From Owenia fusiformis (lineage: Eukaryota > Annelida > Polychaeta > Sabellida > Oweniidae), in the NCBI GenBank assembly GCA_903813345.2, contig CAIIXF020000003.1:17064931-17128930 (forward strand): a stretch of 64,000 bases of DNA, given 5' to 3'. Position 1 is the first letter of the stretch, and the number at the start of each line of letters is the position of its first letter. Positions 14,701-55,927 of this stretch are shown here, piece after piece. A model generated the notes under the pieces. It saw only the letters and a list, made by a program, of their open reading frames with translations, did not search any database and was not told the origin of the DNA. A program made the position numbers and the translations under genes.

Positions 14701-17700
14701 CTAAATATACCATGAATCTATCAAATGTATACACACATACCTGGGTTAAGGAAAAAACTGTTGACAATCTCTAATTTAACAACATATGAATTAAAAGGAT
14801 TCAAGTTCATTTACTTTAGAGAATGATGATTTATTTTCGACGTTTTGCCAGTCATCCAACCGAAACGTCGAAAATACATGTAGATCATTATTCTCCGAAG
14901 TAAATGAACCTGAATTATTTTAATATATTACCAGTGTTGGATCTACACAGAAACACATGTATTGTTTCTTATTTCATAGAATTGTTCTGGACTCCCCCTG
15001 AAGATCTCGCTATTAGCTTAGATGAAAAGACAGGGACCAAGCCATCAGATATGTACGCCTGTGGTATCATTATCAAAGAAATACTCTGTCGCAATGGTCC
15101 ATACACAGAATTTGAAGAATTAACACCAAAAGGTAATGAGATTGAAACTAGTGTTTATTTTGATGTGGTGTATTTTGCACAGTTTTTCTAATAATTCCCT
15201 CAAATCGACACAAGACCAGACTCGACAAATGAAAGTTAAAATGTCACTTATAAATCAATCAACAAAAAAATCAGTAATATTTTGCTAATATTTTGTCATT
15301 TTTGTGTGGATACGTGTATTTTAGAAATTATCAATAAGATTAGGGAAGGGTCGGACAAGGAGTTTTTCAGGCCTTTGCTCCCTGTGGAAGTGAGGAAAGA
15401 ATTCCCAAAATGTTCTAGTCTTGCCATAAAACTCTGGAATGAACTTCCCGAGACGAGGCCAACTGTAGCTGAAGCTCATAAAATTATGAAACGGTGCTCA
15501 AGGTATGGATTAAATATTATGAATAGCAAACCTACAATAGTTTTTATGTAACTAGGCAACAGTGTATGTCCTATTTGGAATTATTTGTTTCAGTTTTTAT
15601 GCCGCTGGTATGAGTAGGTGTTCGATGTAAAGACTTGCCTGGCATGGTCGGATGACATTTGTATTTGACCTTATGGGGAAATTACAAAAAATCTGAAGGA
15701 TATTGTTATATGAGCCATGCCACAGGAAAAGGGGTTTTATCACAGATTTTTCAATATTTTGATTTCTTGTTTATCTTAAAAAGCACAAAAAGACCTTTCA
15801 AATGAGCCATGACTTATGTCTTAACAATTTTTCCTTGCATATATAGCTCAAAAAGTCGGATTTTAATTTAGCACATTTTCCTATTAATCTTGGGCACATT
15901 TTTGGCTCTGTAGCACAATTTTAATTTTTGTGATAAGACCGGTTTTCCTATGGCCAGGCTCATATGATACTGCCACTCATTTGTATAGAAATAGATTAAA
16001 TCAAATTTATTTTTACTTATAGATTAAATCAAAACATACGTATATATTATAGACTCCCATAGCAAAAATTCTAGAGCCGCTCAGTTGCTGGAATTCAGTT
16101 GATCGTATTAGATGCAAAGAGGGTTTACAGAAGATGACAAGATGGGAAAATTTATATATATGATGTCACTGTTGTTATTGAAGGTCGCTGGATATTGTAT
16201 ATAGTCGTATTTCATAGTTTGTCATATCTAGGGAAATTGTCCTCGATATATCACTTGTTTTCTCTTTAAATAAATAATCTGGACTAAAGTTTCATTATCT
16301 TGGTTACCATAACCTATCTTTAAAATGTTCAGTAGTGCATTAAATAGTGAGTGAATATTAACGAAATCTTAACAGTGTAGGGGAATTTGGCGGGGCCTAT
16401 CCAAATATGAATGATAAGATTGGTTCTAGGATCCTCCGTGTGGAAGATAATTGTGCAGAACTTTTTGAACGACCCTCATAGAAAACCATTTGTTATGTCA
16501 CTACCAGAAGTGTATTGACATATTGTTATAATCTCCAACTTTTTATGGTAGCGGTTGGTGTCCTGCATTCGGAGTTCGGCGTCTGTAACAAATGGCATGC
16601 ACTGGTGATGACATTTTGCATGTTAATGCCTTGCATATTATATTTAAAGCTAGATCTCGATCTGATCTGATTTCCAGTAACACAACAGTTGTTGATAACA
16701 TGATCAATACGTTGGAGAAATACGCTAACAACTTAGAGGACATAGTAATTGACAGGACCAAGCAGCTGGCAGAGGAGAAAACAAGGTCTGAAGCACTACT
16801 CTATAGGATGTTACCAAGGTATTTTGAAGTTTTGGATTTTTGACATAAATTGGGCGCTCTTTTTGTATGTAATAGTCAAAGCTCAATCTAATCTGATTTC
16901 CAGTAATACAACGGTTAGATGTTACCACGGTATTTTGAACTAAACATAAATTTGGTGCTTTATTTTACTTTGTCAGTTTTCTAAAGTTGCCCTTTTGATG
17001 GCTGTGTTCATACCTAAAAGTGTTCAATTTGTGCCTTTTAATATCATTTCTATATATATTCCATATTGAGGGTAATGTGGTAGCAACCGACAAGATTAAT
17101 CTCTTGCCTAAAAAGACGTACTATTCTTGCATTTTGCTTTTCTTATATGAAACTACTGTCTAAAGGAAATGCTAACATCCCTGTTGTCACTTACGGCCGT
17201 AAACAGAAGGCAAATGGATGGAAAGATATGCAACAGTTGCATGAGAATCCTGCCCTCAATTCGATTTTTCTCGTTATGCAGTTAAATCATGATTTCAAAA
17301 AAGTATAAATTGAGCCTAGTGATGTTATGAAAAGGTATTGAGAAGCTTTTTTCTGTTTCAGAGATGTTGCCGAAGATCTGAAGAAAGGAATTTCAGTCAA
17401 GGCTGAGAGTTTCGATAGCGTTACCATCTACTTCTCTGATATTGTATCGTTTACATCCCTTTGCGCTCGTAGTACACCATATCAGGTGTGTATGATTAAA
17501 CAAAAATTGAAATGGTCATAAAATTATTTTTTCTGCAACATGGTAATTAGAATAAATAGTAACAAACACAACCCCAAAAAATAATTTGAAAAATCCTCTC
17601 AAGAAAATTATTTTTGAAAATTCGGGCCCACCTTAAACATTGGCTCACTTTCCGGAAAGGTATCAAAATGAGGCATATAATGTTCCTCGATCCCTCCTGA

Positions 17701-20261: not shown

Positions 20262-20308
20262 TCGGATACCTCATGTTTTTATTTAAATGTTTATTTATCA
20301 TGACATGT

Positions 20309-20314
20309 AATAAA
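20309..20314 (+). terminator. Poly(A) signal of the cyclase gene
   Basis: A canonical AATAAA stands 48 bases after the stop codon at 20259-20261, in an AT-rich 3' region. Confidence 0.7.
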
Positions 20315-21274
20315 ACAACTTTGTCGTTTTGTAAAACTTTTTGTTGGTTTTAAAATAAGGTGTGGTATACAGGGTGTTTCAGAATGGGCGTACCCCGTCA
20401 ATCAACAATCTTAAATTGCATATACCTCAGTCCATGTGTTATATATCATATCTTGACTTATTGAGCAACAATATCGATTAAGCTCAGCAGCTTTAACTGC
20501 ATACTACACTACACAAATAACAACCCCATTTTTAAAAAAACTAGCTGTGTTTCCTGGTTAAAACCAATGATATCCAAGGCTGGGAGTATTCTCTATAGTA
20601 AAGTACCAACTATATCATTTGATGAATGCTAAATATATATCTTAATGCTATTTTAAATGATACAATGGATTATATTATTATCTACCCCTCTCTTTAAATC
20701 TATTTCAAACAGAAGCCATAAATCCAGCAAAAAGGGTGAACAGGTGAAAGTACATCCCCAGAACACAGGCCTCCAAAACTCGTATCTCCTTCTGGGAGAA
20801 GGAAGGAACTTAGTGGATGATGTCACGGTCTGGAACCCTGCGTTCGGAGGAAGGTGAATTGACGACCAAACATAAATTCACAAATTATGTTCCCAATGAT
20901 CAATCGTGTCAATATTTAGCCCATAAGTCCAGCATGGAAAAAGCTTTATAATGATATCTAGCTAAAGGGATCAGGTGATTTATGATTGGCTGTGGATGGG
21001 GGCGGGGGCGGTTACTATTAAACAAATTGAATATATATTTACATTATATATAGTATTGATGCAAAGAGTAACAATCTAATTATTTGGGATCAAAGTAATA
21101 TTTATTTATAAACTTAGGCAACTAAAAAGATATTTATCAACTTGAAGTTTTAATTTTTAAAATTAACTTCTAGGCCGGGTAGACCTCTTCTCTTGAATAT
21201 AGTTGTATCGAGACTTTTATTTGAGTGTACATGTAAAGAACACATCCAGCACTTGTATTCTTAAGATAGGGGAA

Positions 21275-21435
21275 CAGGACCGTAGTCAGGGGACACGAAT
21301 AATTTCGAAATCGTGATGTTTTTTACCATAACGAGCACCCTGCAAATGATTTTGAGCCAAAATTGTCAAATTTGAACCCCCATGGATTTTTCTTAACTGC
21401 CCCCTCCCCGTCTGGCAAATTAAGCTGGCTGTGGG
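21275..21435. repeat. MITE family C, diverged copy
   Basis: It has the family layout: CAGGACCGTAGTCAGGGG start, GAGCCAAAATTGTCAAATTTGAACCCCC in the middle (split match), and an AGCTGGCTGTGGG end. Confidence 0.7.
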
Positions 21436-22072
21436 TATATAGGTATATAACCTAGATAGCTCACATATGGTTCTCTTTCGTTATAGAGACCAGCTGAACA
21501 ACGTCTGTCACATAATGGTGCGAATTAGAATAAATCAAAAACCTTTTAGTTACCATGGTGTTACGCCTAATATTTAAAGGGACATGTTTGGTAACCAATT
21601 ACGATTACCAGAAAAGTATTTCTAGATGAACAGTGACTTCCAAATAAGGATGGCTCCAAACGCGAACATAGGGGTGCCGGGAGTAACACCGATGTGTTGC
21701 TAAAAGTGGTTTGTACTTTCCCTGTCTGTTTTTTGCTTTTAACAAAACTAAATAATATCCGCTTTTAAGGTCATCTTGTTATTCTCAATATAAGTGTTTG
21801 TCAACAGTCGCGCGCTATCAATCATTGTAAGGAACTATCTAAACAATAGAATTCGAGTTAACATTTTTTTATCCGGTTATAGAAGTTGTTATGACACGAA
21901 CATATGCGAGGAGCTGGTATGAGAGTATTTTTTGTTTTAATTTCAAGGTTAAGTTTTGAACGAATCAGGCCTGTTGGGGGGACGAGCAACAAACACTATG
22001 AATCAAGTTCTAAATAACTATTTTTTGCTCATAGCCATGCCATGCTTAATTTTATGATAAAAATCGTATGTT

Positions 22073-22203
22073 TATGTCACCACCGTCCACAAGTGGTAAC
22101 ATATTATTATAATGTTCAACTTTTATGGACGGTTTTCGGCAGTTGGTGTTCGCCGTTCGGTGGTTGTTGTTCGGCGTACAGAGATTTTGCATATCAATGC
22201 CTT
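22073..22203 (+). repeat. MITE family A, copy 4
   Basis: It starts TATGTCACCACCGTCC, contains GGTGTTCGCCGTTCGGTGG and ends near TTTTGCATATCAATGCC. More diverged than the other copies. Confidence 0.75.
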
Positions 22204-22564
22204 ATATTACGTTGTAAATGCTTTGATATTTATGCATTTTGGCAAACACTAAAATAACAGCGGACGTCCCGTTTGTTAACGTGAATATAGGGATTTCTGC
22301 ATCTTTAAAATAGTTTCAGATAGATGAGGCCAATTGGTTTTGAACATCAAAATTAAAAGAGAACAGTTCTATCACCAACTATTATATATGGTTTTCACTT
22401 TTGAGATTTCCCCTTGCGCACCAACATGCGCACGTGCCTAGATATGATGATCTTTTACAATAAAAGCTTACTCAATCACTACAAGGCCCAAAGGCGAACT
22501 AGGACAAAGGAGAACGGACCAGCGAAGGAAACCACCAGTTTTAAACGAGGGGATCTGGCTCAAA

Positions 22565-22616
22565 ATGTTGAAGATTTTAGCGGTTGTATTGAGTTTGAGT
22601 GTTGCATGTACGCAAG
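22565..22616 (+). CDS. Signal-peptide exon of the secreted ligand-binding-domain gene
   Basis: The exon begins AAAATG and encodes MLKILAVVLSLSVACTQ, a textbook signal peptide: Lys near the start, hydrophobic core, small residues before the cut. It ends one base into a codon at the donor G/GTACGT. The next in-phase exon in this orientation starts GA at 33595 and completes Gly. The join across an 11-kb intron rests on phase and logic, not on transcript data. Confidence 0.75.
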
Positions 22617-25600
22617 GTACGTCAATAATTAAGTTTATGGTGTTTTTCGTTCATGATGTTTTTCTGTATCCCTTTCTTTCATTGTTTGATACATATTATT
22701 AATCATTTGATTGCTGCTTATTTGCTCTTCACTGGTGATCTTATTTACTATTACGCTGGGTACCGAAACGGTTCGTTTCGAAATTTTTTGAATTTATGAA
22801 ACTTTATTAGGGCTACTGAAGGTACGATAATCCTCACGACATTTTTTCTCACAAACGTGTATCAGTATCATATGTTTTATAAAAGGTACATGTTTGCAAA
22901 AATATAGCTCAGAAGACAACAGAATCGTCGATTTAATTCCTCACCGGCATAAGTTATAAACGGTAAGGGTTAAAAGCGCAGATCTTGAATGTTTTTCGAA
23001 ATACCGTTTCTGTTGTCTTATGAACTATTTGTTCGCAAATATGTACATTTTCTTAAACATATGATACTGATACACGTTTGTGATAAAAATGTCGTGGGAA
23101 TTCTGCCTACAACGTGTGAAATAAAGAAAAATCGTACCTTCGATGTTCCGACATTTTGTTACCGAAACGGCAGTCCAGCGTAATCGAGTGGATCACCAGT
23201 GTCTTGTTAAGAGCACATTGCTTCTCATCGAACTGCTACTTTTATTGCGATAACAATTTATGAAAATATAATTATTGAGTTTTGGGAAACCTTTATTAGG
23301 GCTACCAGCTTATATTATACCATTCGCATTCGTTCGACTTGCTTCTTAAAAGAGAGCCTCATCTTCAAGGACTAGAGTATGCGCACTGGGTAAATATACT
23401 AAATAAGGGCTTGCTTTTTCAACATATTTCTGATATTTGGTTAAATGTTGTTGTTTTTTCACATGTCTATTGTCAAAAGGATATGATCAAAATATTGGAT
23501 CTAAAAGTGTAAAAGTGTAAAAACTTGCATTATTCTAAGCTTCTAGCATACATCAATTTATATAATTTAAAACCTTTTCAAATTAGCTCTTACACTAAGA
23601 CGGCCAGGGGATCATAAAATAGGAGCAATTATCTCTTAAAACACATAATTTGGATGATAAGCTGATAATGATAATCATATTTCTTGAATATGACAAATGA
23701 CGACTTTCAAAGGTCAGCATGTCTAGCCTCTATGTAAATATCTAAGTGACAAACAATTGCCTATCACATTTTCTTTGAACTCGTTGAACTCTAAGTGGTG
23801 TGATTCACATATGAGCTTCACATTGCAGTAAATTTAAACAGAGGTCATCCTTTGTTTGCTTTCAGCTTTTCACATACCACGGGAATATTGTATTATTACC
23901 ACCTTGCCGGGCCAGTTCTAGGGGTTTTAGTGCTACTTTAGAAGGCGTTTATTTTACTATATCGACCTGAGAAATGTGTGACGTCATAGTGGTGGTCCAT
24001 ATGGACCGGTCTAGAATATATTCTGGACCGGCAATTTTCCCCGGGAAATTAGATATCGTTCAATGCGTAAGATTTTCTTGCTGTTTCAGTCCTGAAGCCT
24101 TATTCATAAAGCCAACGTAAATATTTCCATTTACGTCCACGTAACTCAATTATACGTTGGACGTAAAAACATCTCTCCGTCGTATTCATAAACATATGCG
24201 GAAATTGGAGATCTACGTCTAACTTTCCGCAAGGACTTACGCAATGAAAATAATATACTACATACTCCCATATCATGTCCCAATTTTGTGATCACGTGCA
24301 TGCAAGGGCGTTACAATACCCGGGAATTTATCGGTTCGTCCAGTACTTGTTTGTGATAGCGCCCTCTGTAGGTCACTGTGCTTATAGCCTACAGTAATAC
24401 GGGGTAGGATATCGGGAATTCGGTCAGTTTCTATCCGTCGATTTCGCTATGAATTGAAGCAAGTGTGACCACTTTATCCACTTAAACAATTTGATAATTG
24501 ATTAAATCTTTAAACAAAATCGATAAACACGTTATACACTTCCTATCTCCTTAGAAATTAGCATGTATTTATGGATTGTGTTTTCGAACAAGGCTCGACC
24601 CACCCCAATAGGGAAATCCTTATGCTAATTAGTATGACGTCATATTTTCCTGGGGAATCCTAGATTTCAAGGCCTCAGTCTGTTATTGTGTCAAATGTAA
24701 ACGCTCTTGGGACGCTCTTTTGCAGACAGAAAATTGACAGATTAGCTTTTAACTTTCAGCTTTGATGTTTAAATATTCTGTATTTCTACCGGACTTCTTG
24801 CTGAATATCATATAATGTTATAACTTGATTTGGATCATTGCCTGATTGATCATTCTGAAATTTTGATTGTGATTCATGATTGATTGGCAAGAAAAATAAT
24901 TCCTATTGTTTTCCAGCGAAGTCAAAATGTTACAGCATGAGTTATAATGTCGAGTTTGCATCATGTTAAATTCTGCTAGTGATTAGAAGTCCATGCACAA
25001 GCATACACATAAGAGACAAACACACCCAGTCTCCAGGCCGTGGATGGAAATATAAAACTATTTAAGGCACAAACTGGTATTAATAGACCGATATGTAGTG
25101 TCTGCCATGTATTGAAGGTAAACCAATCTGTATTATTAATGTTTCTTCTATCAATACATGGGTTGTGCAATAGAAAAGCAATGGCACAATCAAAAATGTG
25201 CATATCAATCGTGAATATCTCTCGGTTCAAAGCTTATTTCCAACAGAATCGTGTCAAAATATGTGTCTGAGTAACAGTTATACATTATAAGATCGCAAAC
25301 TCTTACCAATTATCAGCCGAATGGCTCATTTTCAACGAAATGTCCTTAAGACAACAGCCCTGGGTCGCGCCTGAGACCAAAAACTACTTCAAATAGCCCT
25401 CCCCTAATTATATTGGATAATCACATTTATGCGTGCGCGCGCAGCTCATCCAATGAACGAAACGCCACTTCCCGCTGAAATCACCGGGTATTCATCTTTC
25501 CCTTGGTGCATGTACGTATTTGAATATGATTGCATCGTTCACGCACGCGTAATTTGACGCGTTCCTCATTGTCACGGTTGCTCCTTGATTATTTATACCC

Positions 25601-28600
25601 CTATATAAAAGCTTATCGTATTCCTTTCGACTTCATTTTCTCATTCATTGATTTACACAAAAGTACTATTGTTTTTGACGATACCTGAATTAATGGTGGA
25701 AGGGCACAGTTCCTCCGTGTTGGGGAACTTATCATGCATAGCCGTAGGGACCGGGGGTTCGATGGGTTCGGACGAACCCCCGGTCGGGATTTCTCCCAAA
25801 AAAAATATTTGTGGAAAAATCCATTGCAATAACCAGAAACATATATTCAATTTATGTGACCAGTAGGAAAAAATAGTAAAGGAAGAGGTGCGATTATTGG
25901 CAAATATTCCTATGGTCAAAATGAATCATTCTTAGGTGTAACATGAAGAATAGAATGTCATATAATACTTTGGAAAATATCAAAGTGCTCGGGCACACAT
26001 AAGCTGAGTTAGGGATCATTTCGTTCAATAAGGTAGTATTGACTTACATGGGGCTATGCACCATTGACTTAACATGAGGATATCAGCAGATCCCAACAGA
26101 GGCCATTGGTTTCCATTGATTATCACAGAAATACCAAAAATACACTATGACCTGAATCGATTGCAAACTTTATAATTAAACAATATGACACAAGGGGGTT
26201 CATTTCATCAAATGTGCAAATATGAAGTTTGCAATCGATTCAGGTCATACTTTAAATTAAAAGATTGTACATTTTTTCATCATTTTTCCCTACAAAATGG
26301 CTATAAAAAATGCTCTAAAAACATATTTTTATTATCCATCACTTTTTAAGGAAAAATAAATCCATTGCGAAAAAATCAGTTTTGTTTTTGCAGATGCACG
26401 TTTTTTAATTTTAAGATTAAATTGTTGCTGTTTCAGTGTATTTAGTGTTTACTCTATTTTCAAGAATATCAAACTTTAGTGGATCGTGTTAATGTCATTA
26501 ATTAATTTAATTATATATGTTTAGCAAATAAATGGATTAAGGGAGGCAATTGGGTGAGTATGTCTCTGGTACTAAATACAAGTGTAAGCTAAAAAGGTAC
26601 ACACATTACTTGCAGTGGAAAGTTCTGTCCAATAAAAAAAAGCCAGTTGCAGTCATCTTTTGCTGAGGAAAGCAAAGGCATAAGGAGGATTATATCAAAT
26701 AAGACTAGATTTATTAAGTATTTCGAATGAGTATTTTATATCCACAGTTAAAGTAACACATTTATGATGTATCTAAAATCTAAAACCTCAAAAAGTGATA
26801 GATATGACTACATGTTGTATAAAAAGAGATTTTTTAAAAAAAATTGTGTCTGAGAGATAAATAAAAAAGAAAAAAACCTTAGTTTAGACCGGGAATCGAA
26901 CCACCGATTCAATCTATCAAAACCTTAGTCCAGCGCCTTACTCCATTAGGCCACACTGGCATAATGAAATAACACTGTAATTCTAAAGCTATCTTATAAA
27001 TTTTATCACTGCATAAGATTAATAAAAAAATAGTCAATAATCATTTTAATAATATTTAAATATCTATTTCGGTAAATTTTTAAGTCAAAACCAGGATTGA
27101 TGATGTAAATTCAGTTTTCATTTAGATAATCTATTTCCTGTTATGAGTCGTAAAAAACATGGCTCCGAAAAAATATTTCTTGCATCCAAATTTCAAAATG
27201 ATATATATCCATGGATCAGTTATTTTTGGCACATGAACCCATCCTACACTCTGTTAAGCATGATAAAAGGCAAGAAGTTTAGTTAGAAATAAAAGAGTTA
27301 TCTCATGAATGGGACCCTTACATGGCTCCTAAAAGGTAGAAGACACTAAATGGTGTGACACTATAAGCTGAATTTTGTCCACATAGAGCATGTGCACAAT
27401 ACTAAAGACATGTAAAATTGAACTGTCAAAAGAACTGAAATATACTTACCAGCTCGCCTCTTCCGGAAGTTATGATACGTTATGGTGTAACTACGGTAAT
27501 TAATTTTAAAATATTGAAAAAATCACAAAATACAAGTTCTGAGGTATATCGCCATTTTTAAGCGAATTAGCCCATACTATGACTATATATTCGCACCCCC
27601 ATATACAGATATATATAAACTTCATCTTCACAATAAACCGAGATTCTTTCAAATTTCCATTTTTTGAGATAAGTGCCATTTTCTTACAATTCAAGCCGTA
27701 AAAATAGTTGGAAAGTGCTTCCCAGTTGAGGTTAATGGCTTTTATACTTACATTAATGTATGGAGCACTTAAAATGTACTTAGAATCGTATAAATAGCTC
27801 TATTCTGTGAGATTTATTTTTGTTTTTATTTTTACATTTTTCTCACCTCATAATTGAAGAGCTCCGCTGTTGATTTACATTCAGTTACACGTATTTCCTT
27901 GAAAATTCGCCATGATTGGAACAAATGATGGTTGGTTTATGTTATATTCATTTAGTTTGTATTTGAATCTAGCTACTTAAACACAAAACATGTCTTCATG
28001 TTAAGCTACAGAGCAAAGATCGCGAATTCTAGGTGAAGCCAATTATTTTGCACAAGTCATATCCTGATTGCATCATAGTTACTTTGTACTAGTCACATCT
28101 TGATTGCATCAGCCAATTCACGTGATTTACAGTTTACACATTGTTTCAATATACATGTTATACTACTTCCGGGTAGGGTAGTGTTTTTTATACTTTAAAA
28201 ACGAAACCATTTCGATCAGTTTTTATAATCCTTGGTAGAACTGAGAGGTATTACAATACATATTTAAATTAATACACATGAGTGTATTTGATGAACTCTC
28301 AAAAAATAAAACCCACAATAATATCTTTTTTATTCACAATTTCATGTCATTGTTTCTACCAAGTCGCCTCTTTCTCTCTTTTCTTTATTTTTGTCAACAG
28401 TCAAAATCGGAATTTAAAACTTGGTTTCTTTACAAGCTCTGCTTCTGTAAATACTAAATAACATGAAAAATGTTAAACCTTACATCCTACACTTATTTGA
28501 TATGAAATAGGCGATCATTGATATAATTTTTGTGCTGTTAAGTGTGGATCTTTTAATTTTTTAGTCAAACTTGATCGCTGATCTCTGTCGATGTGACGTC

Positions 28601-31600
28601 ACGCATTAAGTATGCACGCATGGGCAGTACAATACATAAGGCAATATGGCGTCTTAGGCCTATACATGAGCCAGAATGGAGGTCTGCAAGTTGAAATGAA
28701 TATGTTTGTTTATGCATCAATCGATCACACATATAATCCAGACAATCTTTCAAATCATATACTTAACATTGTAATGGATTTATTTATTTTGTGAGCTAAC
28801 GTTCCCTTTAATTTTCATTGGTGAAGCAATGATTTTACCTAAAATGAGTCCCTGTCTTTGCATAGTGATATTTAAAAATCGAGAAGCAAAACCTATGTTG
28901 AATATACTGTGTATCGATGAAGTTTATATATAGCCTAGGGGAACTCAAAAATATTGTTATTATATCGGCAAATTCGCTCGAAAATGGTTGTACACCCTAG
29001 AAATTGAATGTTGTTGATTTTTTCAATATTTTAAAATTAATTACCGTAGTTACACCATAACGTATCATAACTTCCAGTAGAGGCGAGCTGGTGAGTAATT
29101 TCTATTATTTTGACAGTTCAATTTTACATGTCTTTAGTATTGTGCACATGCTCTATGTGGACAAAATTCAGCTTATAGTGTCACACCATTTAGTGTCTTC
29201 TACCTTTTAGGAGCCATGTAAGGGTCCCATTCATGAGATAACTCTTTTATTTCTAACTAAACTTCTTGCCTTTTATCATGCTTAACAGAGTGTAATAGAA
29301 AGGTAAGACTATTTTCTTGACTCATATCGCTTAAATTGTCGAAATTCGGCCTAGAATCGTAAATGTGTCACTTAAGGGGAAAAGTTCATCATTAACCCTA
29401 CCAATATGCATTGCTTCCTGATATACTATTTGTCATCTGTCACTTCTATCGTCAGTACCAATTGAGAGTATTCGTGCAGCCATTACGACTTTTATTGTGC
29501 GCCATGATTAAATAAGTATCATATCTTCAAAAATATTTGCTTTTGAATATACTAGTATTCAGTAACTAACTGTAAGTTCATGAGGTCATTATGAACTCCT
29601 CTATTACAAAATGAAATGGCAGATAAAATTATTTTGATTTGGATTCTTCTCAAAAATCATAAAGTGTGGGAATAGCATGCCAGAATTTGACATAATGTAT
29701 CTTTGAATGATGAATTGGGAATGACGACTTTTTCAATGGTAGCTCGTTAAAAATATGTTCCTAAGAGATATGTTGTAATTTGCCCTTAACAAAGTTGTCT
29801 CAATGTATGCTAACCCTTCATTTGGATTTCATTGAACAATTAAACAATTGTTATATAAAATGTATGATTTTGCTACCAGATTTCAATATCTTTCAGTAAA
29901 AGATTCACCAAAAACTATTTCAATATAGAAAATCAAATTGTTGCCAAACTTTTGGAGGGGTGTAAATTGTATGTATGACAAATACAAAAAATGCTTTTAT
30001 GTGAGGTACACCGATGAAGGGGGAGATTTGTGGATACATAAAAAATCGAACCCCTGGTCACCAATTGCTGGCTACTCCAAAATTAAATGCCTCGGTAATC
30101 TGAACCTCGTAAGAAGCTCCCTATCATCAAAGATTTCGAGGGGATTGCTACGATCCCTAAGCAATCGCTCTCGTCTAAGAGACCGTCTTACTGCAAAGAT
30201 GCGCACATCTACCACAAAAGCCATCTTTGCTTACATGCGTTTGTTCTTTCTTTCTATTACGTAATGATGACGCATTGGCATTTGAAAATAATTTACGTTG
30301 AACGTATATGAAAGATACGTTGCTGTTAACGCTTGGACACCTAGAAATTGATGACATTTTCGTACCTGTCTTTGGAACCAGCTAGAAACTTGAAGATGTC
30401 AAGCAAATGACAAATCATTTTAACATTACGTATTATATCTAAAACAAGTGTTTCACAAAATCTCATGGTAATTGGATACTAAACGTACGAATAAATAGTG
30501 TTTTTAAGGCTGGACGTAAAGTTACACGGTGAAGATACTTGACGTAAATATTTTGTAAGATCCGCAGGACTTTACGTTCATCGTAAAGTTACGTTTGCTT
30601 TATGAATACCAAAATAAGTTTCCGTAATACGATACGTTGACGTAAGTCCTACGTTGGCTTTATGAATAAGGCTACTGGTCGTTAACGGTGGTAATAATAC
30701 TAATAACGTCATTTCTGCGAGCGATATAGTGAAATATTGGACCTTGGGCCTTCGGCCCTTGGTCCAATATTTCACTATATCGCCCTTAGAAATGACGTTA
30801 TTGTACTATTAGCTTGTATTTGCGAATGCAACTGACGCCTGTCGGCTACCGGATTAACCTAGTATTTTATTGGAAACTCATTTAAATATGAATAGTACCT
30901 ACCACCATTCCATTCATATTTAAATGAGTCATCAAATATTGGGTTAAGCCGGTATCCGACAGGCGTTAGTTGCATTCGCGAATACAAGGTTAGTCTCTCA
31001 ACACGTGTTTCACATTTACTGGGTGACCCTCAAAATGTGAATGGAGGTGTTCTGTTTTCACAATAAAAATGTGATATGATTAATAGGTCGCCAGCATTTT
31101 GCCCTTTAACTTTTATTCGACTTCGCTTAAAAGCATATAAATAATATCATAGATATTATTTTAAAGATTTAATATCACAAGGCTCAGTTAAAAAAAGATC
31201 TTTATTTTCATAATAGTTTATAACTAGACTCTGCGCGGAGGGTAGCATTGAAACCTAAAATGTGAATCTCTGTTATGTCAAGTGTAAACGTTTTTACATT
31301 CACATTGCAAATGTGAAGTTCAATCAGAATTGAATAGCTCGCCGGGCAAGAGAAACATTAGGGATTTCAAGCTTGCAATGTTTTTAACAACCTAAACGTG
31401 AACGTAAAGTACTGTTGAAGCGATGCATTTGTATGGGAGATTGGTCAAACGTACAGGTTGGCGTTTCGAATTTATATCAGTGGAAGCTTAAACTCCCTAT
31501 TAATATTACGAAAGAAAATGTGAATAAAAATGTGAATAAAGTGGGAGCAATGATCCATGAGTTAACAAATTCTATCATACAGAGTTGCTATTGTTTACTG

Positions 31601-34600
31601 GTTGTTATTCATCTACTCTTTTTATACTCATAATTTAAATGAAACGTTTGAAAATATTTGTTGAATATGACAAAGAACGACTCAAAGGTCTACATGTCTA
31701 GCTTATATGCAAATATTTAAGTGACGCTTTCAAACGATAGATTTGATGTTAGAAGAAATAATCTAATTTCCGGAATTAAATATTCAAAATTCAGTCAACT
31801 TGATAGCATTCTAAACCTACATGTAAAATCGCATCTTAAAACGTGGTTCCAAAAATTGTTTATCAACTTTGAAAAACTAATTTTCTATTAAAATGTTACT
31901 TCTAAGTCGGGCAAAATCCCCATAGAGCCCATGTTATGAAATCACAAAAAGTAAAATATCCTTTCCTGTATTGGACTGATATTTATTTCACTGGACATAT
32001 TTTTATTTGAAAAACTATCACATACGAAAGGGTAAAGTGAAAATTGATCCAATAAAACTGATGAATATTAAAGGGAGTTTTCCATGTTATCTGACCCGAA
32101 TTATCCACCTGGTGGCGAAACTGGTAACTACCTCCTGGTATCTGGGTTATTGCCTTTCACATATTCTGTGAACTCAAAGTGGCGTGGGTCACTTACGAGC
32201 TTCACATTGCAGTAAATGTGAAGGGAAGTTCATCCTTTGTTTGCTCTCAGCCTTTTCACATACCACGGGAATATTGAATTACTCACCCAGCATGTGTTTC
32301 ACATTTCCTAAATTTGCACGAAGTGACCCTCAAAGAATCAAGAACATTCTCCGATCGGGTGTTTTCTTTCACAATTTTAAATGTGATATGATTAATAGGT
32401 CGCCAGCAGTTATTGAAACTCAAAATGTGAATCCTGGTCAAGTGTAAATAATTACCTCCTGGTATCTGGGTTATTGCCTTTCACATATTCTTTGAACTAA
32501 AATAGCGTGACCCACATGATACGAGGTTCACATTGCAAAAAATGTGAAGGGAAGTTCATCCTTTGTTTGCTCTCAGCCTTTTCACATACCACGGGAATAT
32601 TGAATTACTCACCCAGCATGTGATTCACATTTCCTAAATTTGCTTGAAGTGACAATTATAGTGAATGAAGAACATTCTCTGACCACGTGTTTTCTGTTTT
32701 TACAATTTCGAATGTGATATGAATAATAGGTCGCCAGCGTTATTGAAACACAAAATGTGAATCCTGGTCATTGGTCAAGTATAAACGTTTTATATTCACA
32801 TTGCAAATGTGAACTTCTTAACTGACCCGAATTAGCCACCTGGTGGTGAATCTGCCAATTACCTCCTGGTATCTGGGTTATTGCCTTTCATTTCACATAT
32901 TCTTTGAACTCAAAATAGCGTGACCCACATGATACGAGTTTCACATTGCAGAAAATGTGAAGGGAAGTTCATCCTTTGTTTGCTCTCAGCCTTTTCACAT
33001 ACCACGGGAATATTGAATTACTCGGCCAGCATGTGTTTCACATTTCCTAAATTTGCTCGAAGTGACCCTCGAAAATTGGAATCAAGAACATTCTCCGATC
33101 GCGTGTTTTCTTTACACAATTTCAAATGTGATATGATTAATGGGTCACCAGCCGTTATTGAAACTCAAAATGTGAATCCTGGTCAAGTGTAAACGTTTTA
33201 CATTCACATTGCAAATATGAACTTCAAATCAGAGTTATTGAATAGGTCTCTAGCCAAGAGACACATTTGTCCTACGATTCAAAATGTGAATAAAAGGTCA
33301 TTTTCTTCCACATTCTTTCACAGCTTTTCATATTCACATTGCGATATGAAGGCTACAATTTAATAGATCGTTACCATTAGTAGTAAATCTATTAATTAAG
33401 AGTTGTAATTAAAGAGTATTTAATTATTATACAAGATTAAAAACGTTCCTAAATCGTGAAACCATATAACTTTAATCTCTTAAAACAAAACATTAATCTA
33501 ATGCAACAATTCAGTTACTTTTTGTTACATCACCATTTCAGATCAAAATGATGATTTCAAATTGTACTTAAACACTAAAATGGATTTGTTATAGGACACG
33601 GCAACGGACATGGTCACGACCATCACGGGGACCATAGACACACACACAACGATAACCATGATCACAGCACTGATAGCTTTAAGATAACAACCATTAAGGT
33701 AAGTTTTATACCATTAGTTTCATGCCAGAACGAAAATAGAGAGTTTAAGCGTGCAATGTTATTCACAATCTAAACGTGAACGGAAAATATTTAAGCGCTG
33801 CATTTGTATGGGCGATTGATCATACGTATAGGTTGGCGTTTCGATTTTATATGCAAGCTTAAAATCCCCAATAACATAGTTCTGATACTTTATTTTAGAG
33901 GTAACCAAAAGCTATATAAACCAAATGGAACCTCTTGTTCAAGAGCTCCTATATTGACTTTAGATACTGCTAAGTAATATATTTCTACTGGTTAGCCTAG
34001 TTGAGGCAAGCTTAATCAACCGTTTTTCTGATAACATAAGGATTGATTTAACATGGGGATATGTACCATTGACATTGCTATTGTCACATCCCGATACTAC
34101 ACGTATCATCATGGGGAATTTCAACTAGTAAAATTATGTTACTGTGTGTATGCGTTGGAATCGGGGTTCAGGAAGTTTTAGCCTAACCAGAAGTTTTAAC
34201 AGGAACAGTTTTAAAGCCTAACAGGAAGTTTTAGCCTAACACAGGCCTTTCTAATAATTTTGGTTGCCTCTCTATTTGTTATTATTTTCCTTTGACAGAT
34301 GTGGCAATGGATATTCCTTTGAAGCCAAGATTATCATCTTTTTTTAAATATTCGAATATCAAGGCATTAAAGTTGATTTTCAAATTAGCAAATATTCCAT
34401 AATTTCTTAAAGGAAAGATTGAGCGAAGGCCATATTATTTCAATAAATAACATCAACAAGTGAAAGCTTGAAAAAGTGGGTGGAATAGTTTTAATAGCTC
34501 TAGATTGAAACACAGCTTTATATGTGAGTACTTTTAGAACATAGTCGTGTATCTTTTTTCAGGTGGAACCATACTACAATGGTAACCAGGGATACATAGT

Positions 34601-36073
34601 GGATCTGATCAAAGAACTACAACACGTTATGGGGAACTTTACGTATCAGCTGAATGAGGTGGCAGATGGGATGTATGGATCAAAGATCGGTCGTAGGTGG
34701 CGCGGGATGATAGGGGAGGTCATTTCAGCGGTAAGCCAATGCGTTCCTGAAGATTTCAAATTCCTCAATAGTATAGTTTCCATATAGCTTCTGAAATCTC
34801 GCTAAACCTCGTTTTTCGCGAGATTTTAAGAGATTTGTACATTAAACCTCTAATGACTTCCATTACCTTCTTTTAAATGGCATATTTGAATTCAGGGAAA
34901 TGTTTTCTCCTATAATAGCTAAATGATTTACGCAGTTATGTAATTTGAATAATTTTCTGTGACAATTTAAAAAAACTTGGGCCAAATCTCCATAGATGCA
35001 ATGCTAAAATTCTTTAAAACCTTGGATTATTTGTATGTCAACCAACATTTGCATGTTTGATCACGACATGTACATAAATAGGGTCATCATGTGGTATATC
35101 ATTCAAGTTTTAAACAGATTCGACTAACACCCTTTGATAAATCATGAAATTAAGCCACTTTTCCAAGATTTTAGCATGTAAGTGAATGGAACTTAAGCCC
35201 AAATCAAATTCTGAATAAAAGATGGCAGCACTAGATTTCATTGCTTTTTCTGCTATTTAGAAACTATCCTATTAAAACATTTATTGACGCAACGTTGCAC
35301 GGCATATACGATCGTATACAGTACGCCTTTCGGTCGACCTACTGTATGAATGTTCATGAATGTTCAAGAACATTTTCGAATCCTCGCTAACATATGTGAA
35401 AAGGTTTTCCAGATACATTGAAGATACGTCATGAAAATATATTCTGTATTCATTTCAGGATGCGGACTTTGCCGCCGCACCGCTCTACATCACGTCACGT
35501 CGTGCCAGGGTTGTCGATTTCACGGTCCCCTTCATGAAGTTCGGACTTGCGGTTCTCGTTAAGAAGCCTCAAAATGGACAGTTGCAAATCACGTCTCTTT
35601 CTGCCTTAGTACGCCAAACAACCGTCGCTTATGGTACACTACGAGGAGGCAGTTTACCTCGCTATCTTGCCAGATCAAGAAACAGCGATGTTCGTAAGAT
35701 GTACCGTTGGATGCGGCTGAATTCTAACAGAGCATATGTGGACAACGTCGAGGAAGGCGTCCGTCGCGTCATGGAAGGAAACTACGCATTTGTTCTGGAG
35801 GAACCATTTGTTGAATATCTCGCTCACAAGACCCCGTGCCTCATGGCTGACTTTTCATTCCCTGCGGATTCTGGTATAGAAATCAAGTTTGGCCTTGCGT
35901 TTAAGAAGGGTAATTCACACTTCGCTCACTTCAACGACGCATTGAAGATGTTGAAATCGAGTGGTGAGTTGGGACATCTTCATCACAAGTGGTTCCATTC
36001 TGGGTGTGATAGTCATAGTCACAGTCATCACCCTGGCAACGCACACGACCATGACGATCACCATCAACACTAA
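22565..36073 (+). CDS. Secreted glutamate-receptor ligand-binding-domain protein (S1S2 without pore) with His-rich tails
   Basis: Four exons (22565-22616, 33595-33698, 34563-34730, 35459-36073) give 312 aa. Residues 1-17 are a signal peptide. Residues 18-41 hold 10 His. About 46-145 match the S1 half and about 152-287 the S2 half of AMPA/kainate receptor ligand-binding domains. Residues 292-312 hold 9 His. The amino-terminal domain, membrane helices M1-M4 and pore loop are absent. S1 passes to S2 through a few residues after KKP inside one exon, so no pore exon can be spliced in. Kept ligand-site positions (GluA2 mature numbering in brackets): Tyr63 (450), Pro116 (478), Arg123 (485), Ser173 (654), Glu222 (705). 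Changed: Tyr118 (Thr480) and Leu174 (Thr655). Cys235 and Cys291 match the conserved lobe-2 disulfide. It probably binds an amino acid or related ligand, and metal, outside the cell; function is otherwise unknown. Confidence 0.88.
23321..23369 (+). repeat. Dispersed short repeat, direct copy
   Basis: Copy of the repeat at 378-426: CATTCGCATTCGTTCGACTT then CTTCTTAAAAGAGAGCCTC. Confidence 0.6.
23780..23905 (+). repeat. Partial copy of the 0.32-0.41-kb repeat found in tandem at 32127-33235
   Basis: The blocks GAGCTTCACATTGCAGTAAA, TCATCCTTTGTTTGCT and TTTTCACATACCACGGGAAT occur in the same order as in the tandem units 9 kb downstream. Confidence 0.75.
25750..25790. repeat. Short GC-rich hairpin
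   Basis: ACCGGGGGTTCG and CGAACCCCCGGT face each other across about 11 bases, giving a stem of at least 12 bp in otherwise AT-rich DNA. Confidence 0.6.
26145..26254. mobile_element. MITE of about 108 bp with 25-bp perfect ends
   Basis: TATGACCTGAATCGATTGCA (26145 on) is the reverse complement of the end at 26230-26254; the paired region is about 25 bp. TA at both ends is compatible with a TA target duplication. The interior has no other structure. Confidence 0.7.
26884..26960 (-). repeat. tRNA-like sequence (tRNA pseudogene or SINE head)
   Basis: On the - strand the block starts GCCAGTGTGGCCTAATGG, which holds a good Pol III A box (TGGCCTAATGG), and later has a perfect B box GGTTCGATTCC at the usual distance. 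The D-arm pairs (GGCC/GGC), but the T-stem and acceptor stem do not pair properly, and no clean anticodon stem is visible. I therefore call it tRNA-derived rather than a working tRNA gene. Confidence 0.6.
27246..29293. mobile_element. Non-autonomous DNA transposon with 280-bp terminal inverted repeats
   Basis: 27246-27524 and 29016-29293 are near-identical inverted copies. The left starts CACTCTGTTAAGCATGATAA and the right ends CTTAACAGAGTG. TA on both outer sides fits a TA target duplication (Tc1/mariner-like or similar superfamily). The roughly 1.5 kb between the arms has no long reading frame. Confidence 0.85.
30703..30803. repeat. Near-perfect 100-bp palindrome
   Basis: The outer arms AATAACGTCATTTCT / AGAAATGACGTTATT enclose inner arms GCGATATAGTGAAATATTGG / CCAATATTTCACTATATCGC, closing on GGGCCTTCGGCCC. 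It could extrude as a stable hairpin and is probably a small MITE. Confidence 0.8.
30814..30990. repeat. Second adjacent foldback, 0.18 kb
   Basis: The arms read TTGTATTTGCGAATGCAACT and AGTTGCATTCGCGAATACAA. Inner pairing continues through GCCTGTCGG-x-ACCGG / CCGGTATCCGACAGGC and ATTTAAATATGAAT / ATTCATATTTAAAT. It lies just 10 bases from the previous hairpin but is unrelated in sequence. Confidence 0.8.
31357..31504 (+). mobile_element. MITE family B, full-length copy
   Basis: The element has inverted ends (GGGATTTCAAGCTTGC ... GGAAGCTTAAACTCCCTATT), is about 148 bp long and has no coding potential. It matches the copies at 11131-11232 and 33735-33874. Confidence 0.75.
31765..32126 (-). 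mobile_element. MITE family D, inverted partial copy
   Basis: In reverse complement this matches the elements at 44108-44532 and 54888-55313: GGTAGTTACCAGTTTCGCCA at its 3' side, then the GGGCTCTATGGGG and AGAAGTAACATTTT blocks. Diverged, with one end lost. Confidence 0.75.
32127..33235 (+). repeat. Three tandem units of about 0.32-0.41 kb rich in CACATT/AATGTG
   Basis: Units start with TACCTCCTGGTATCTGGGTT at about 32127, 32451 and 32858. Each contains TCACATTGCAG-AAATGTGAAG, TTTTCACATACCACGGGAAT, AATGTGATATGA-TAATAGGTC and AATGTGAATCCTGGTCA in this order. The similar open frames in units 1 and 3 come from the duplication and show no domain, signal peptide or splice context, so I do not call them genes. 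Confidence 0.85.
33595..33698 (+). CDS. His-rich exon of the secreted ligand-binding-domain gene
   Basis: Acceptor TTATAG, donor AAG/GTAAGT, phase 1 in and 0 out. It encodes Gly/His/Asp alternation (HGNGHGHDHHGDHRHTH and on), then DSFKITTIK, the first beta strand of the S1 lobe. The His-rich start has the look of a Zn/Cu-binding tail. Confidence 0.88.
33735..33874 (+). mobile_element. MITE family B, third copy
   Basis: It runs from GAGAGTTTAAGCGTGCAATG to GCAAGCTTAAAATCCCC and lies 36 bases after the His-rich exon donor. Confidence 0.7.
34563..34730 (+). CDS. S1-lobe exon of the secreted ligand-binding-domain gene
   Basis: A 56-codon exon, phase 0 both sides. It encodes VEPYYNGNQGYIVDLIKEL, matching the E-S-P-Y ... 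E-G-Y-C-V-D-L block of AMPA receptors. Next come YQLNEVADGMYGSKIG (Y-x-L-x-x-V-x-D-G-x-Y-G) and WRGMIGEVISA (W-N-G-M-V-G-E-L). Tyr63 is the ligand-capping Tyr. Confidence 0.95.
35459..36073 (+). CDS. S1-end and S2-lobe exon with His-rich C-terminus
   Basis: A single 205-codon exon ending in TAA. It begins DADFAAAPLYITSRRARVVD (the A-D-I-A-I-A-P-L-T-I-T-x-x-R-E-x-V-I-D block), passes through PFMKFGLAVLVKKP, then goes straight to LSALVRQTTVAYGTL, where real receptors have about 120 residues of M1, pore and M3 in between. YAFVLEEPFVEYL carries the ligand Glu. It ends LGHLHHKWFHSGC and then a Ser/His/Asp tail. Confidence 0.95.
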   Translation, partial: DADFAAAPLYITSRRARVVDFTVPFMKFGLAVLVKKPQNGQLQITSLSALVRQTTVAYGTLRGGSLPRYLARSRNSDVRKMYRWMRLNSNRAYVDNVEEGVRRVMEGNYAFVLEEPFVEYLAHKTPCLMADFSFPADSGIEIKFGLAFKKGNSHFAHFNDALKMLKSSGELGHLHHKWFHSGCDSHSHSHHPGNAHDHDDHHQH

Positions 36074-42357: not shown

Positions 42358-45300
42358 CTGAAAAAAATATCAATACTCATACAGTAATTGTATAATGGGT
42401 AGATAATTCTTTTAAAAATCCAACCGAAATGTTATTTCTAAGAAATTGAGGCAGCTGCAACTTCTCAGACTTTTTCTTGTAAGAGAACCATGTATTGGTG
42501 TACCATTGTTTGAAAGGTGCAGTAAATGTATACATTAAATTAATTCATGTTTATGTGTTTTTATTGTACTGAATCGTTGACTTTTCTCTTGCTAAACATC
42601 AAAACAATTACGTTTTTCAACTAGGTTCATACATATCTCAACATACACGATTTCCCTCATGGGTGCAAACAAATTATCAATAGCTTGGGTGCATTCAACC
42701 GATTGCAAACAAATTCTAAAATGGGTGCAAATGATTTCTAACTAGGTGCAAACAAATCACAACATGGATGCAAACAAATTCCAGACTGGATGCAAACAAA
42801 TTCTCAACTATGTGCATGACAATGACACAATAACATAGTTTCTTTTCAAAATGCTTCACAGAAATGGCATTTACCTAGTAGATAATTCAGTGTATCTTTA
42901 GCAATGGTCCTGAAGTCATCTAGGCAATGCTTCAACTCTAAACTGTTCTGTTTGGCCCTTAGTAGACTTTGGTACTGTGCTGCAACATCCTTAGAACTAT
43001 GGATAGAAACAAAACAACAGTGTTATCAATAACAAGTAGTTATAAATTCCATATTAATGTACAGTATGTAAACATGCATATAAATACTAAAGTCAGGGGT
43101 TTCGTAGAAAAACATTGGAAAATTGACTTGGTCCCAGAAACATCATGAAAGTCAGTAAAACATTAAACGAAAATTTTAGTACCTTTCAGCTGTCGTCACA
43201 ACATTTTTCATCAGTGGGTCCATCTGGTGGGCATTTTGTAAACTAGCAATAGTACTCTTTTCATCAAGTAGAGTTTGGCAAGATTCGGCAAGAGTCTGTA
43301 GCTTCTGTTTAACCTCTTGGTTGTCCTTTATATAAACGTGTATCTGTTTAAGGTGCTGTGTTTCCATTGCACTCAAATTATGAAGTAGTTTGTCCCGTTC
43401 TAATGTTAGTGCTGAGACATTGTCTTGGATGATTTGTTTGCATTGAGCCTCGATTTTAGTTCTTGCATTGATATGTGTGGCCTGTAATATATTTACAAAA
43501 AGTTAAATATGTAAGTTTTGTATAATATGTTGAAATACAAGATTCGTACAATATGTTGGAATACAAGTTTTGTATAATATGTTGAAATACATTTTTTGCA
43601 TGATATGTTGAAATATACATTTAGTATGACATGTTGAAATACATTTTTGTACAATATGTTGAAATACATATTTTGTATGATGTGTTGAAATACATGTTAT
43701 GTTGAAATACTAAAATATGTTGACTCTACAATATGTTGAATTATAGCAGAATTTACTATGCCATTAGGATGTGAGTATTACTTTTTTCATTAATTCTTAT
43801 TCAGATTCTTTTTAATTTGTATAAAAATATGACCATCAATCCCCGATATAACTGAGATCACGACAAAATAATCCAAATATTTTGACCTCTAATGGCCTGT
43901 TTCCTTTGTCAGATACTAAATTGACATCACTATCAAATATCTGAAAGCCTAACACCAACCACCATCAAGGTTTACCTTCATTTCAGCCTGTATGTCTTCA
44001 GCCTTACTGCATTGATCACTCAGAGCTGTTAGCAGATTCTCAAGCTTCAGTTTCGTACCCTCAATAGACTCCTGCGTGAATAAAATGAAAAACAGTCAAC
44101 AATAACGCAAATGCGAGTAGGTAGTTACCACTTTCACCACCAGGTGGCTCGCTCGGGTCAGATAGCATGGCGGGTATAGTAGAAAGTTCCCTTTAACTTA
44201 AATCACATCTGTTTTAGTGGTTCAATTTTCATGTAGCACTAATGTGTCGAATAGTTATGCAAATAAAAATATGTCCAGTAAAAGAAAATGATATCTGTCC
44301 AATACAAGAAAAGATATTTCACGTTTTGTGATTTTGTAACATGGGGTCTATGGGGAATCAACCCGAACTAGAAGTCACATTTTCAAAAAATATTAAATTT
44401 TCAAAGTTGATAAATAATTTTCGAAACCATATTTTTAGATGTATTTTTACATGTAGATTTCAAATATGAAATCACTTTGACTGAATTTTGAATATTTAAT
44501 GACGTAAATCAAGATCATTTCTACTCGCATCTAGTCTATTGGTCAGTGATTCAGTTTTACTCTTGATGAAACAGGAAAACTAAATATTGATTCAAGCCAC
44601 CCACATCATCAAATGATAATGTAATCCATGGAATATTTTTCTCCTTCAGTAAAGTCCTTGATTTTAATGGACTTTTCTTCACTTCACATTGGTTAGAGTT
44701 AAACAACAGGTTAAACTGCCTTATTACGAAGTATTTTGACAAAAAAGCATCATATAATGAAGGACTTTTGAGGTGGCACAGAGGCAAGAAGCTGTTTGCC
44801 AAAAGGCTTCATAATAAAGCAATTTGCTGCGTAATAGGTACCATTGTTTTCATTTTTAATCCAAAATTTTCAGATATTTATCGTCAACATACCTTCATTT
44901 TCCTTGATGCATTTTCAGGCTTCAAAATCTTATGCCCTCCGTGTTTCCCGTCTCCATCACACACACATAGATGGCAGATAAGTAGCTTACAGTGATCGCA
45001 GTAAATACTCGCATGCTCAGTGGTGTGGTCTTCACAATATTCAACATTCTGATTTTTCTCCACATCAAACGGGGCACGGAGTTTGTGACGCAATAATGCC
45101 CCGCGTCGCGGATGATACTTATTCAAGCATGGGTTACAATAGTTCACGTCACACTGGCAACAATATTGCGTTGCCTTAGCTTGATTACTACTCTCACATA
45201 AGTCACATTTGCGTTTAGAATTTTGAGCACTCGGAAATCCTTCGTGGGAATGGGAGGGTCCTCCCGTGGCCTTATCTGTGTCCCTTGGTTCTGGAGATTC

Positions 45301-55313: not shown

Positions 55314-55927
55314 AGTGTCAATAGGGGCTAATATCAGATATGACACATACCTTACATAAAACAGAATTTTCAATTGAGTCATTCCAACATAAGAGATCAT
55401 GAATCACATTGTTTTATATGATACAAAAATCAATCCTACCTCCCAAAATTTCATAAAATAAAAACAAATATTAAACTTCATGCTTATCATTATTAATAAA
55501 GCCCCAGATCCCATCTGTAACCCTCCATCCCCCAGAACGCCTATGCTAGAGTTAAATTAAGAGAAAGGGTAGACAGGGTTATTTAAATGAATCATTGAAT
55601 TTGCAACTCACTCCTTAATAACATGTTTTACAGCTATATTATTTTCATGAAATTGATGACCTTAAAAATAACAGAAAGGAGGTAAAAATCAATAAATTTT
55701 AAAATGACAATAAAATCTCAATAAAAGTCAAACTGTAAGACAAAATATTTTTTCGGACTACTTCTAGAATTCTCATTTTAGATGGTCATTTTAATTCTTT
55801 ACATGTCTAGCAGAAAGTCACAGTGATTTTATTTCTTAATGTAGTTCTCTATTCAATTATCAGATCACCCATTTTATCTGTAGATGTTAGATACTGTGTT
55901 TCAAGAATAAATCAATAGTACGAGAGA
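55314..55927. other. Intergenic DNA without recognised content
   Basis: AT-rich; no gene, RNA or repeat noticed. Confidence 0.4.

What the first reader, a model, noticed from the sequence alone, without database searches (positions are those of the whole stretch)
22565..36073. A natural, secreted S1S2 glutamate-receptor ligand-binding domain with His-rich tails at both ends
Seen: a signal peptide, a His-rich segment (10 His in about 23 residues), S1 and S2 halves of an AMPA/kainate-like ligand-binding domain, a His-rich C-tail (9 His in 19 residues), and no transmembrane segment. S1 joins S2 after KKP within one uninterrupted 615-base exon, so the pore cannot be supplied by splicing. Known: in real receptors about 120 residues of M1, pore and M3 separate S1 and S2; engineered fusions lacking them are soluble and bind ligand. 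Inference: the animal makes an extracellular amino-acid-binding (perhaps metal-loaded) protein by losing the channel, useful as a scavenger, buffer, decoy or carrier. I know of no described protein with this layout.
Basis: partly seen in the sequence, partly recalled or inferred. Interest (0 to 1): 0.88.

Follow-up and report, generated by a model that had tools for sequence, protein, structure and literature searches.

The report
Glutamate-receptor ligand domain without a channel
A marine worm carries at least four genes for glutamate-receptor ligand-binding domains that lack the ion channel, and the one in this window looks like a secreted protein with histidine-rich ends, so a receptor's sensor seems to have become a free-standing binding protein.

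Summary
Four exons (22565-22616, 33595-33698, 34563-34730, 35459-36073) encode 312 aa: signal peptide, His-rich stretch (10 of 23), S1-S2 ligand-binding domain, His-rich tail (9 of 19), stop. S1 joins S2 inside exon 4; no pore match lies on this contig. The domain aligns to GluA2 S1S2 crystal constructs without a pore-sized gap (1ftk, E 6e-39).

It is not a lone decaying fragment. Of 24 clusters of LBD matches in this genome, four lack a pore: the window's gene W, and B, C, D. B (50% identical) keeps both His-rich stretches and the four-exon plan. B, C and D end in hydrophobic, GPI-signal-like tails; W does not. Introns lie where ordinary iGluR genes of this genome have them, so a channel gene lost its channel. 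The genome is almost surely Owenia fusiformis, an annelid.

The pocket keeps Arg485 and Glu705, but T655 is Leu and T480 is Tyr, so glutamate is doubtful. Metal binding, expression and function are untested. Seven paper searches for this layout showed no description among the papers listed.

The parts
22565..22616 (+). Exon 1: signal peptide MLKILAVVLSLSVACTQ(G), ends in phase 1
   Evidence: Only candidate of its kind in 20262-33594; heuristic scan, no transcript
33595..33698 (+). Exon 2: His-rich stretch (10 His in 23 residues, about 33597-33665) and first strand of S1 (FKITTIK)
   Evidence: same position and phase as the His-rich exon of paralogue B
34563..34730 (+). Exon 3: first part of S1
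   Evidence: Lig_chan-Glu_bd 44.6 bits, cut-off 30; 28 of 56 aligned residues identical in B
35459..36073 (+). Exon 4: rest of S1, direct junction to S2, last Cys, His-rich tail, stop TAA
   Evidence: Lig_chan-Glu_bd 38.8 and SBP_bac_3 45 bits; alignment to GluA2 S1S2 constructs
35561..35590 (+). S1/S2 junction (KKP-QNGQLQ-I): in ordinary receptors M1, pore and M3 lie here
   Evidence: contrast ordinary exons in L006, L008, L009
36008..36070 (+). His-rich C tail, 9 His in 21 residues, in place of M4; no hydrophobic end
   Evidence: ungapped alignment to the tail of B

Best explanation
W is an intact gene for a channel-less, secreted, two-lobed ligand-binding protein that descends from an animal ionotropic glutamate receptor; N-terminal domain, pore and M4 are missing. 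Shown: gene layout, S1S2 domain, missing pore, intron positions shared with ordinary iGluR genes, three channel-less paralogues of which B shares the His-rich ends. Inferred: the clamshell closes on a small amino-acid-like ligand held by the kept Arg485 and Glu705 anchors, more likely glycine-like than glutamate because position 655 is non-polar; the His-rich ends bind Zn or Cu; W acts outside the cell as carrier, buffer or trap, working like a periplasmic binding protein, while B, C and D do so tethered to the cell surface by GPI.
For: 312-aa open spliced frame with good splice sites. Alignment of residues 44-272 of the 295-aa query to GluA2 S1S2 1ftk, E 6e-39, no pore-sized gap; paralogue C aligns residues 6-248 of 251 to GluK4 5ikb, E 3e-60. 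No pore match on contig C3. Channel-less paralogues B 50%, C 40%, D 28% identical; 4 of 24 LBD clusters lack a pore. B has a His-rich exon 2 (10 His in 28) and a tail (9 His in 21) that aligns ungapped to W's, and its own signal-peptide exon. Acceptor one codon before ADxAxAP in 10 of 10 genes read. W and B differ at 103 first, 75 second and 153 third positions over 237 codons. Arg485 kept in 4 of 4, Glu/Asp705 in 4 of 4. Hydrophobic C-termini in B, C, D (2.39, 2.48, 2.41) and not W (-1.77).
Against: No transcript, protein or binding data. T480Y and T655L in W may mean that it binds no amino acid at all. dS between W and B is saturated, so constraint on W itself is not measured. The tree does not unite the four channel-less genes (3 changes on the best tree; one clade not rejected, AU p 0.226), and D lacks the intron after VTTI and has its own S1 intron. 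The GPI and signal-peptide calls are by eye and hydropathy only. AlphaFold of exon 4 alone was uninformative (pLDDT 36.8). No metal-binding evidence beyond composition.
Confidence: 0.55

Rival explanations
1. Glutamate scavenger or decoy: W binds glutamate itself and shapes glutamatergic signalling.
For: AMPA/kainate-like domain; Arg485, Ser654 and Glu705 kept; Gly at the 653 position by my reading of the alignment.
Against: T655 is Leu and T480 is Tyr; a non-polar residue at 655 is the state listed for glycine-binding iGluRs (PMC6307864, passage).
Confidence: 0.13
2. Receptor regulator: the domain pairs with LBDs of true iGluRs, or with synaptic partners, and need not bind a free ligand.
For: LBDs pair in receptors (recalled); 20 of 24 LBD clusters in this genome are ordinary receptors that could be partners; surface tethering of B, C and D would suit it.
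Against: No conserved dimer face was tested; His-rich ends are unexplained by it; pocket anchors kept.
Confidence: 0.12
3. Metal-binding or storage protein that uses a worn LBD as scaffold only.
For: 19 His in the two tails of W, and as many (10 + 9) in B; T480Y and T655L in W.
Against: C and D are channel-less without His-rich tails; Arg485 and Glu705 are kept in W, B and D.
Confidence: 0.12
4. Decaying fragment or gene-model artefact, or part of a longer gene whose pore exon is spliced in from elsewhere.
For: No transcripts seen; exon 1 lies 11 kb away; a donor-like GGTGAGT sits inside exon 4 (about 35966, read).
Against: Open frame and splice sites throughout; no pore match on C3; S1-S2 join inside one exon in W, B, C and D; shared His tails in B.
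Confidence: 0.07
5. Bacterial amino-acid-binding protein gained by horizontal transfer.
For: Exon 4 scores 45 bits with SBP_bac_3, cut-off 26.4.
Against: The best 60 of 376 matched PDB sequences, the only ones listed, are AMPA or kainate receptors; introns lie where animal iGluR introns lie; no relative confirmed in prokaryote genomes, in a scan that reaches close relatives only.
Confidence: 0.01

Closest known systems
AMPA and kainate receptors (AKDF iGluRs; GluA2, GluK4 LBDs)
   Same: S1S2 ligand-binding domain, intron positions, Arg485 and acidic residue 705, Cys718
   Different: No N-terminal domain, M1, pore, M3 or M4; His-rich ends; T480Y and T655L in W
Engineered S1S2 constructs (1ftk, 1ftj and others)
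   Same: S1 joined to S2 directly after KKP/KK with a short linker; soluble (recalled) ligand-binding core
   Different: Natural gene with its own signal peptide and His-rich ends
Protostome ionotropic receptors (IRs)
   Same: Short N-terminus before S1, altered pocket residues
   Different: IRs are defined as having PF10613 plus PF00060, i.e. a channel (PMC2924276, passage); absent here
Bacterial solute-binding proteins family 3 (SBP_bac_3)
   Same: Two-lobed binding protein without a channel, tethered or free; profile match
   Different: W is an animal iGluR by sequence and introns; likeness in action, not membership
Histidine-rich glycoprotein and other His-rich Zn proteins
   Same: Secreted, with His-rich stretches; HRG binds Zn (PMC5372734, start of abstract in the listing)
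   Different: No shared domain known; metal binding of W not tested

Membership tests
Ionotropic glutamate receptor channel | S1S2 ligand-binding domain | tested here: met
Ionotropic glutamate receptor channel | M1-pore-M3 between S1 and S2 (with SYTANLAAF) | tested here: not met
   S1 joins S2 inside exon 4; no PF00060 match on C3
Ionotropic glutamate receptor channel | M4 after S2 | tested here: not met
   Stop after the His tail; no hydrophobic 19-mer above 1.47
Ionotropic glutamate receptor channel | N-terminal (ATD) domain | tested here: not met
   Between signal peptide and S1 there is only the His-rich exon 2; no family found in exon 2. Holds if exon 1 is right
Ionotropic glutamate receptor channel | Amino-acid anchors Arg485 and acidic 705 | tested here: met
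   Alignment
Ionotropic glutamate receptor channel | Glutamate-type side-chain site (Gly653, Thr655) | tested here: inconclusive
   Gly at 653 by my reading, Leu at 655; rule from PMC6307864 passage
Bacterial SBP_bac_3 | Profile match | tested here: met
   45 bits, cut-off 26.4
Bacterial SBP_bac_3 | Prokaryotic relatives nearer than animal ones | tested here: not met
   Listed PDB matches are animal iGluRs; no prokaryote relative confirmed (close relatives only); introns
GPI-anchored protein | C-terminal hydrophobic signal | tested here: not met
   W: best 15-mer of the tail -1.77; but B 2.39, C 2.48, D 2.41, which meet it by hydropathy only
His-rich metal-binding protein | Binding of Zn or Cu | not testable with these tools
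   Composition only: 10 of 23 and 9 of 21 His

The most novel reading that the evidence does not exclude
Animals hold an unrecorded class of channel-less iGluR derivatives, some secreted and some GPI-tethered, that act as extracellular amino-acid (and, in W and B, metal) binding proteins. This would be the reverse of the accepted step by which a binding protein gained a pore, and surveys that demand the pore motif cannot see it.
Probability: 0.4. Interest if true: 0.85.

Novelty: new variant of a known kind. Interest (0 to 1): 0.74.

Why it matters
iGluRs are thought to have arisen when a periplasmic-type binding protein took up a pore (recalled). Here evolution seems to have undone that step and kept the sensor, several genes' worth. 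A natural S1S2 protein lets one ask what this domain does without a channel, and may reveal an extracellular carrier or buffer of a transmitter-like amino acid, perhaps with Zn. At least one large survey left out iGluR rows that keep fewer than four residues of SYTANLAAF (PMC6307864, passage), which would hide such proteins, so they may be commoner than known.

Tried and rejected
Pore exon elsewhere in the locus: no PF00060 match on contig C3. Lone relic: rejected by B, C and D. Bacterial origin: rejected mainly by introns; one search found 90 pattern matches in prokaryote genomes and confirmed none. Subfamily by tree: 17 rows (4 channel-less, 12 ordinary receptors of this genome, GluA2), 14 inner branches of which 4 starred; only W+B of the channel-less is supported (98/95); AU p 0.226 for all four as one clade, 0.302 for W+B+C. 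Loci L020, L022, L023, L026, L028 and L029 were fetched but left out as incomplete, and the receptors at C2:34.97, C11:32.67 and most of C7 were not fetched for it. AlphaFold of exon 4 alone: pLDDT 36.8, not taken to a fold search. COX1 to name the organism: no match. elav1 forward primer: no exact match, which speaks mildly against the species name or means that it crosses an intron; the two syt1 primers match once each. The first W/B comparison of exon 3 was off by one base and was redone. dS saturated and a second dN/dS method failed. No signal exon for C in the 19 kb scanned. Paper searches: layout 13 (2 papers), 14 (0), (20 of 102 listed; 20 of 35; 2; 15 of 18; 1); annelid iGluRs 21 (20 of 123); organism 44; His-rich proteins 52. 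Judged from titles, starts of abstracts and, for PMC6307864, PMC12226733 and PMC2924276, passages. Papers beyond the listed ones were not seen.

Full report
What is there. The product is 312 aa: a signal peptide, 23 residues with 10 His, S1, S2, a Cys and a 21-residue tail with 9 His. Exon 4 is one open 615-base exon in which S1, ending KKP, passes to S2 after six residues. Such His density was not reached in 20 mononucleotide shuffles of the window (at most 7 against 10). Exon 1 lies 11 kb upstream of exon 2. It was the only candidate of its kind in a crude scan between exon 2 and the preceding gene, which by kinase and cyclase matches looks like a membrane guanylyl cyclase and whose frame ends at 20261.

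What it is by homology. Pfam finds Lig_chan-Glu_bd in exons 3 and 4 and SBP_bac_3 in exon 4, all over their cut-offs. Among PDB sequences 376 are matched at E <= 1e-3; the best 60 are listed and all of these are AMPA or kainate receptor chains. The first is the GluA2 S1S2 construct 1ftk (E 6e-39, residues 44-272 of the 295-aa query), with no pore-sized gap. The Pfam pore model has 31 matches in the genome, none on the window's contig.

Channel-less paralogues. Searches of the same genome found three genes with the S1-S2 junction inside one exon: B (C1:17582477-17583088, 50% identical to W), C (C1:14936195-14936797, 40%) and D (C1:1368983-1369708, 28%). C aligns over residues 6-248 of 251 to the GluK4 LBD 5ikb at E 3e-60. 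I grouped all 44 LBD matches by distance into 24 clusters: 18 have a pore match within 10 kb. Two more (C6:13.10 Mb, C11:24.68 Mb) do not, but I read M1-, M3- and M4-like stretches in their DNA. The other four are W, B, C and D. One cluster holds two genes, the searches give lower bounds, and divergent genes may be missed, so 24 is approximate.

B is the telling one. It has its own signal-peptide exon (the only candidate in 19 kb), a His-rich exon 2 at the same place and phase (10 His in 28), and a tail CDSHSHDHHEGNSHDHDHDHDH that aligns without gaps to CDSHSHSHHPGNAHDHDDHHQH of W. The His-rich ends are therefore probably older than the W/B duplication. B goes on with a Ser/Thr-rich stretch and a hydrophobic end; C and D lack His-rich tails but also stop right after a hydrophobic stretch (best 15-mers 2.39, 2.48 and 2.41 for B, C and D, -1.77 for W). 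That is the look of GPI signals (a recalled rule; no predictor was run). W should be freely secreted unless an unseen exon adds an anchor.

How it arose. The acceptor one codon before the ADxAxAP motif is at the same place in 10 of 10 genes read (W, B, C, D and six ordinary receptors), and the donor of that intron is in phase 0 in the seven where one search shows it (W, B, C, L006, L007, L008, L009) and in D. The intron after VTTI(x) is present in W, B, C and two ordinary receptors (L006, L008); D lacks it and has its own S1 intron. So W derives from an animal iGluR gene, and a bacterial origin is very unlikely. Whether the four lost the pore once or several times is open: the tree supports only W+B (98/95), the best tree needs three changes, and one clade is neither shown nor rejected (AU p 0.226).

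Constraint. Over 237 aligned codons of exons 3 and 4, W and B differ at 103 first, 75 second and 153 third positions; dN is 0.51 and dS is saturated. This fits selection on the protein but sums both branches and does not prove constraint on W today.

Pocket. In the alignment Arg485 is kept in 4 of 4 channel-less proteins; position 705 is Glu in W, B and D and Asp in C; Ser654 is kept in W and B but is Leu in C and D. T480 is Tyr in W and Leu in D. T655 is Leu in W, Val in B, Met in D and Thr in C. In PMC6307864 (passages) Gly653 with Thr655 is linked to glutamate, and Ser653 with a non-polar 655 to glycine, with exceptions. W is mixed: Gly653 by my reading, Leu655. I infer a small amino-acid-like ligand, glycine-like rather than glutamate; no binding at all is not excluded. 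Roles and numbers of GluA2 residues are recalled.

Organism. The assembly (498 Mb) suggested Owenia fusiformis, published as 505.8 Mb in 12 chromosome-scale scaffolds (PMC9977687, passages). Both O. fusiformis syt1 primers of PMC8111721 (passage) match exactly once each and face each other on C11 at 1988496 and 2020441; the second lies in a stretch that reads like the end of a synaptotagmin (my reading). The elav1 forward primer has no exact match. I conclude O. fusiformis or a very near relative.

How it most likely works. Shown: a complete ligand-binding domain with no channel, a signal-peptide-like start, and channel-less paralogues. Inferred: it closes on a small amino-acid-like molecule outside the cell and binds Zn or Cu through its His-rich ends, W as soluble carrier, buffer or trap, B to D as tethered forms. 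A regulator of true receptors remains possible. It works like a binding protein; it is not a member of the iGluR channel family, because pore and M4 were tested and are missing.

What is known. Seven paper searches for the layout showed no natural channel-less iGluR LBD protein among the papers listed; three of them listed only part of the papers found, and the library holds open-licence papers only. PMC6307864 left out iGluR rows with fewer than four conserved residues of SYTANLAAF (passage), and PMC2924276 characterises iGluRs and IRs by PF10613 plus PF00060 (passage); both would pass over such proteins. The gene may be in the species' annotation, which I could not see.

Verdict. Whether other animals have such genes could not be tested with the collections on hand.

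Noticed in passing
window 13443-20261 (+): Pieces of what looks like a membrane guanylyl cyclase gene just upstream on the same strand (kinase match 13443-14438, cyclase end 19734-20261).
   Followed up: partly
window 44884-45528 (-): Reading frame with B-box zinc finger matches, TRIM-like.
   Followed up: no
window 55919-56305 (+) and 57160-57567 (-): The same roughly 125-aa open frame on opposite strands about 1 kb apart: an inverted repeat.
   Followed up: no
window 32172-32447 and 32908-33192 (+): Two near-identical open frames in the long first intron, i.e. a local repeat.
   Followed up: no
L019 (G000 C2:34942750-34945500): An AMPA-like receptor locus has two alternative-looking S2 exons in tandem (NSKLDIYKKMW... 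and NSKISVYEQMW..., about 0.5 kb apart), which might be mutually exclusive exons.
   Followed up: no
L004, L007, L010 (G000 C11:24.68 Mb, C7:21.5 Mb, C6:13.10 Mb): Divergent iGluR-like genes with M1/M3/M4-like stretches whose M3 motif departs from SYTANLAAF (for example SYAVSLYGV, SYASSLVTI, TYTGSLVNC).
   Followed up: partly
L005 (G000 C1:1368983-1369708): Paralogue D has signal-like start and start of S1 in one exon, its own S1 intron and an insert early in S2.
   Followed up: partly
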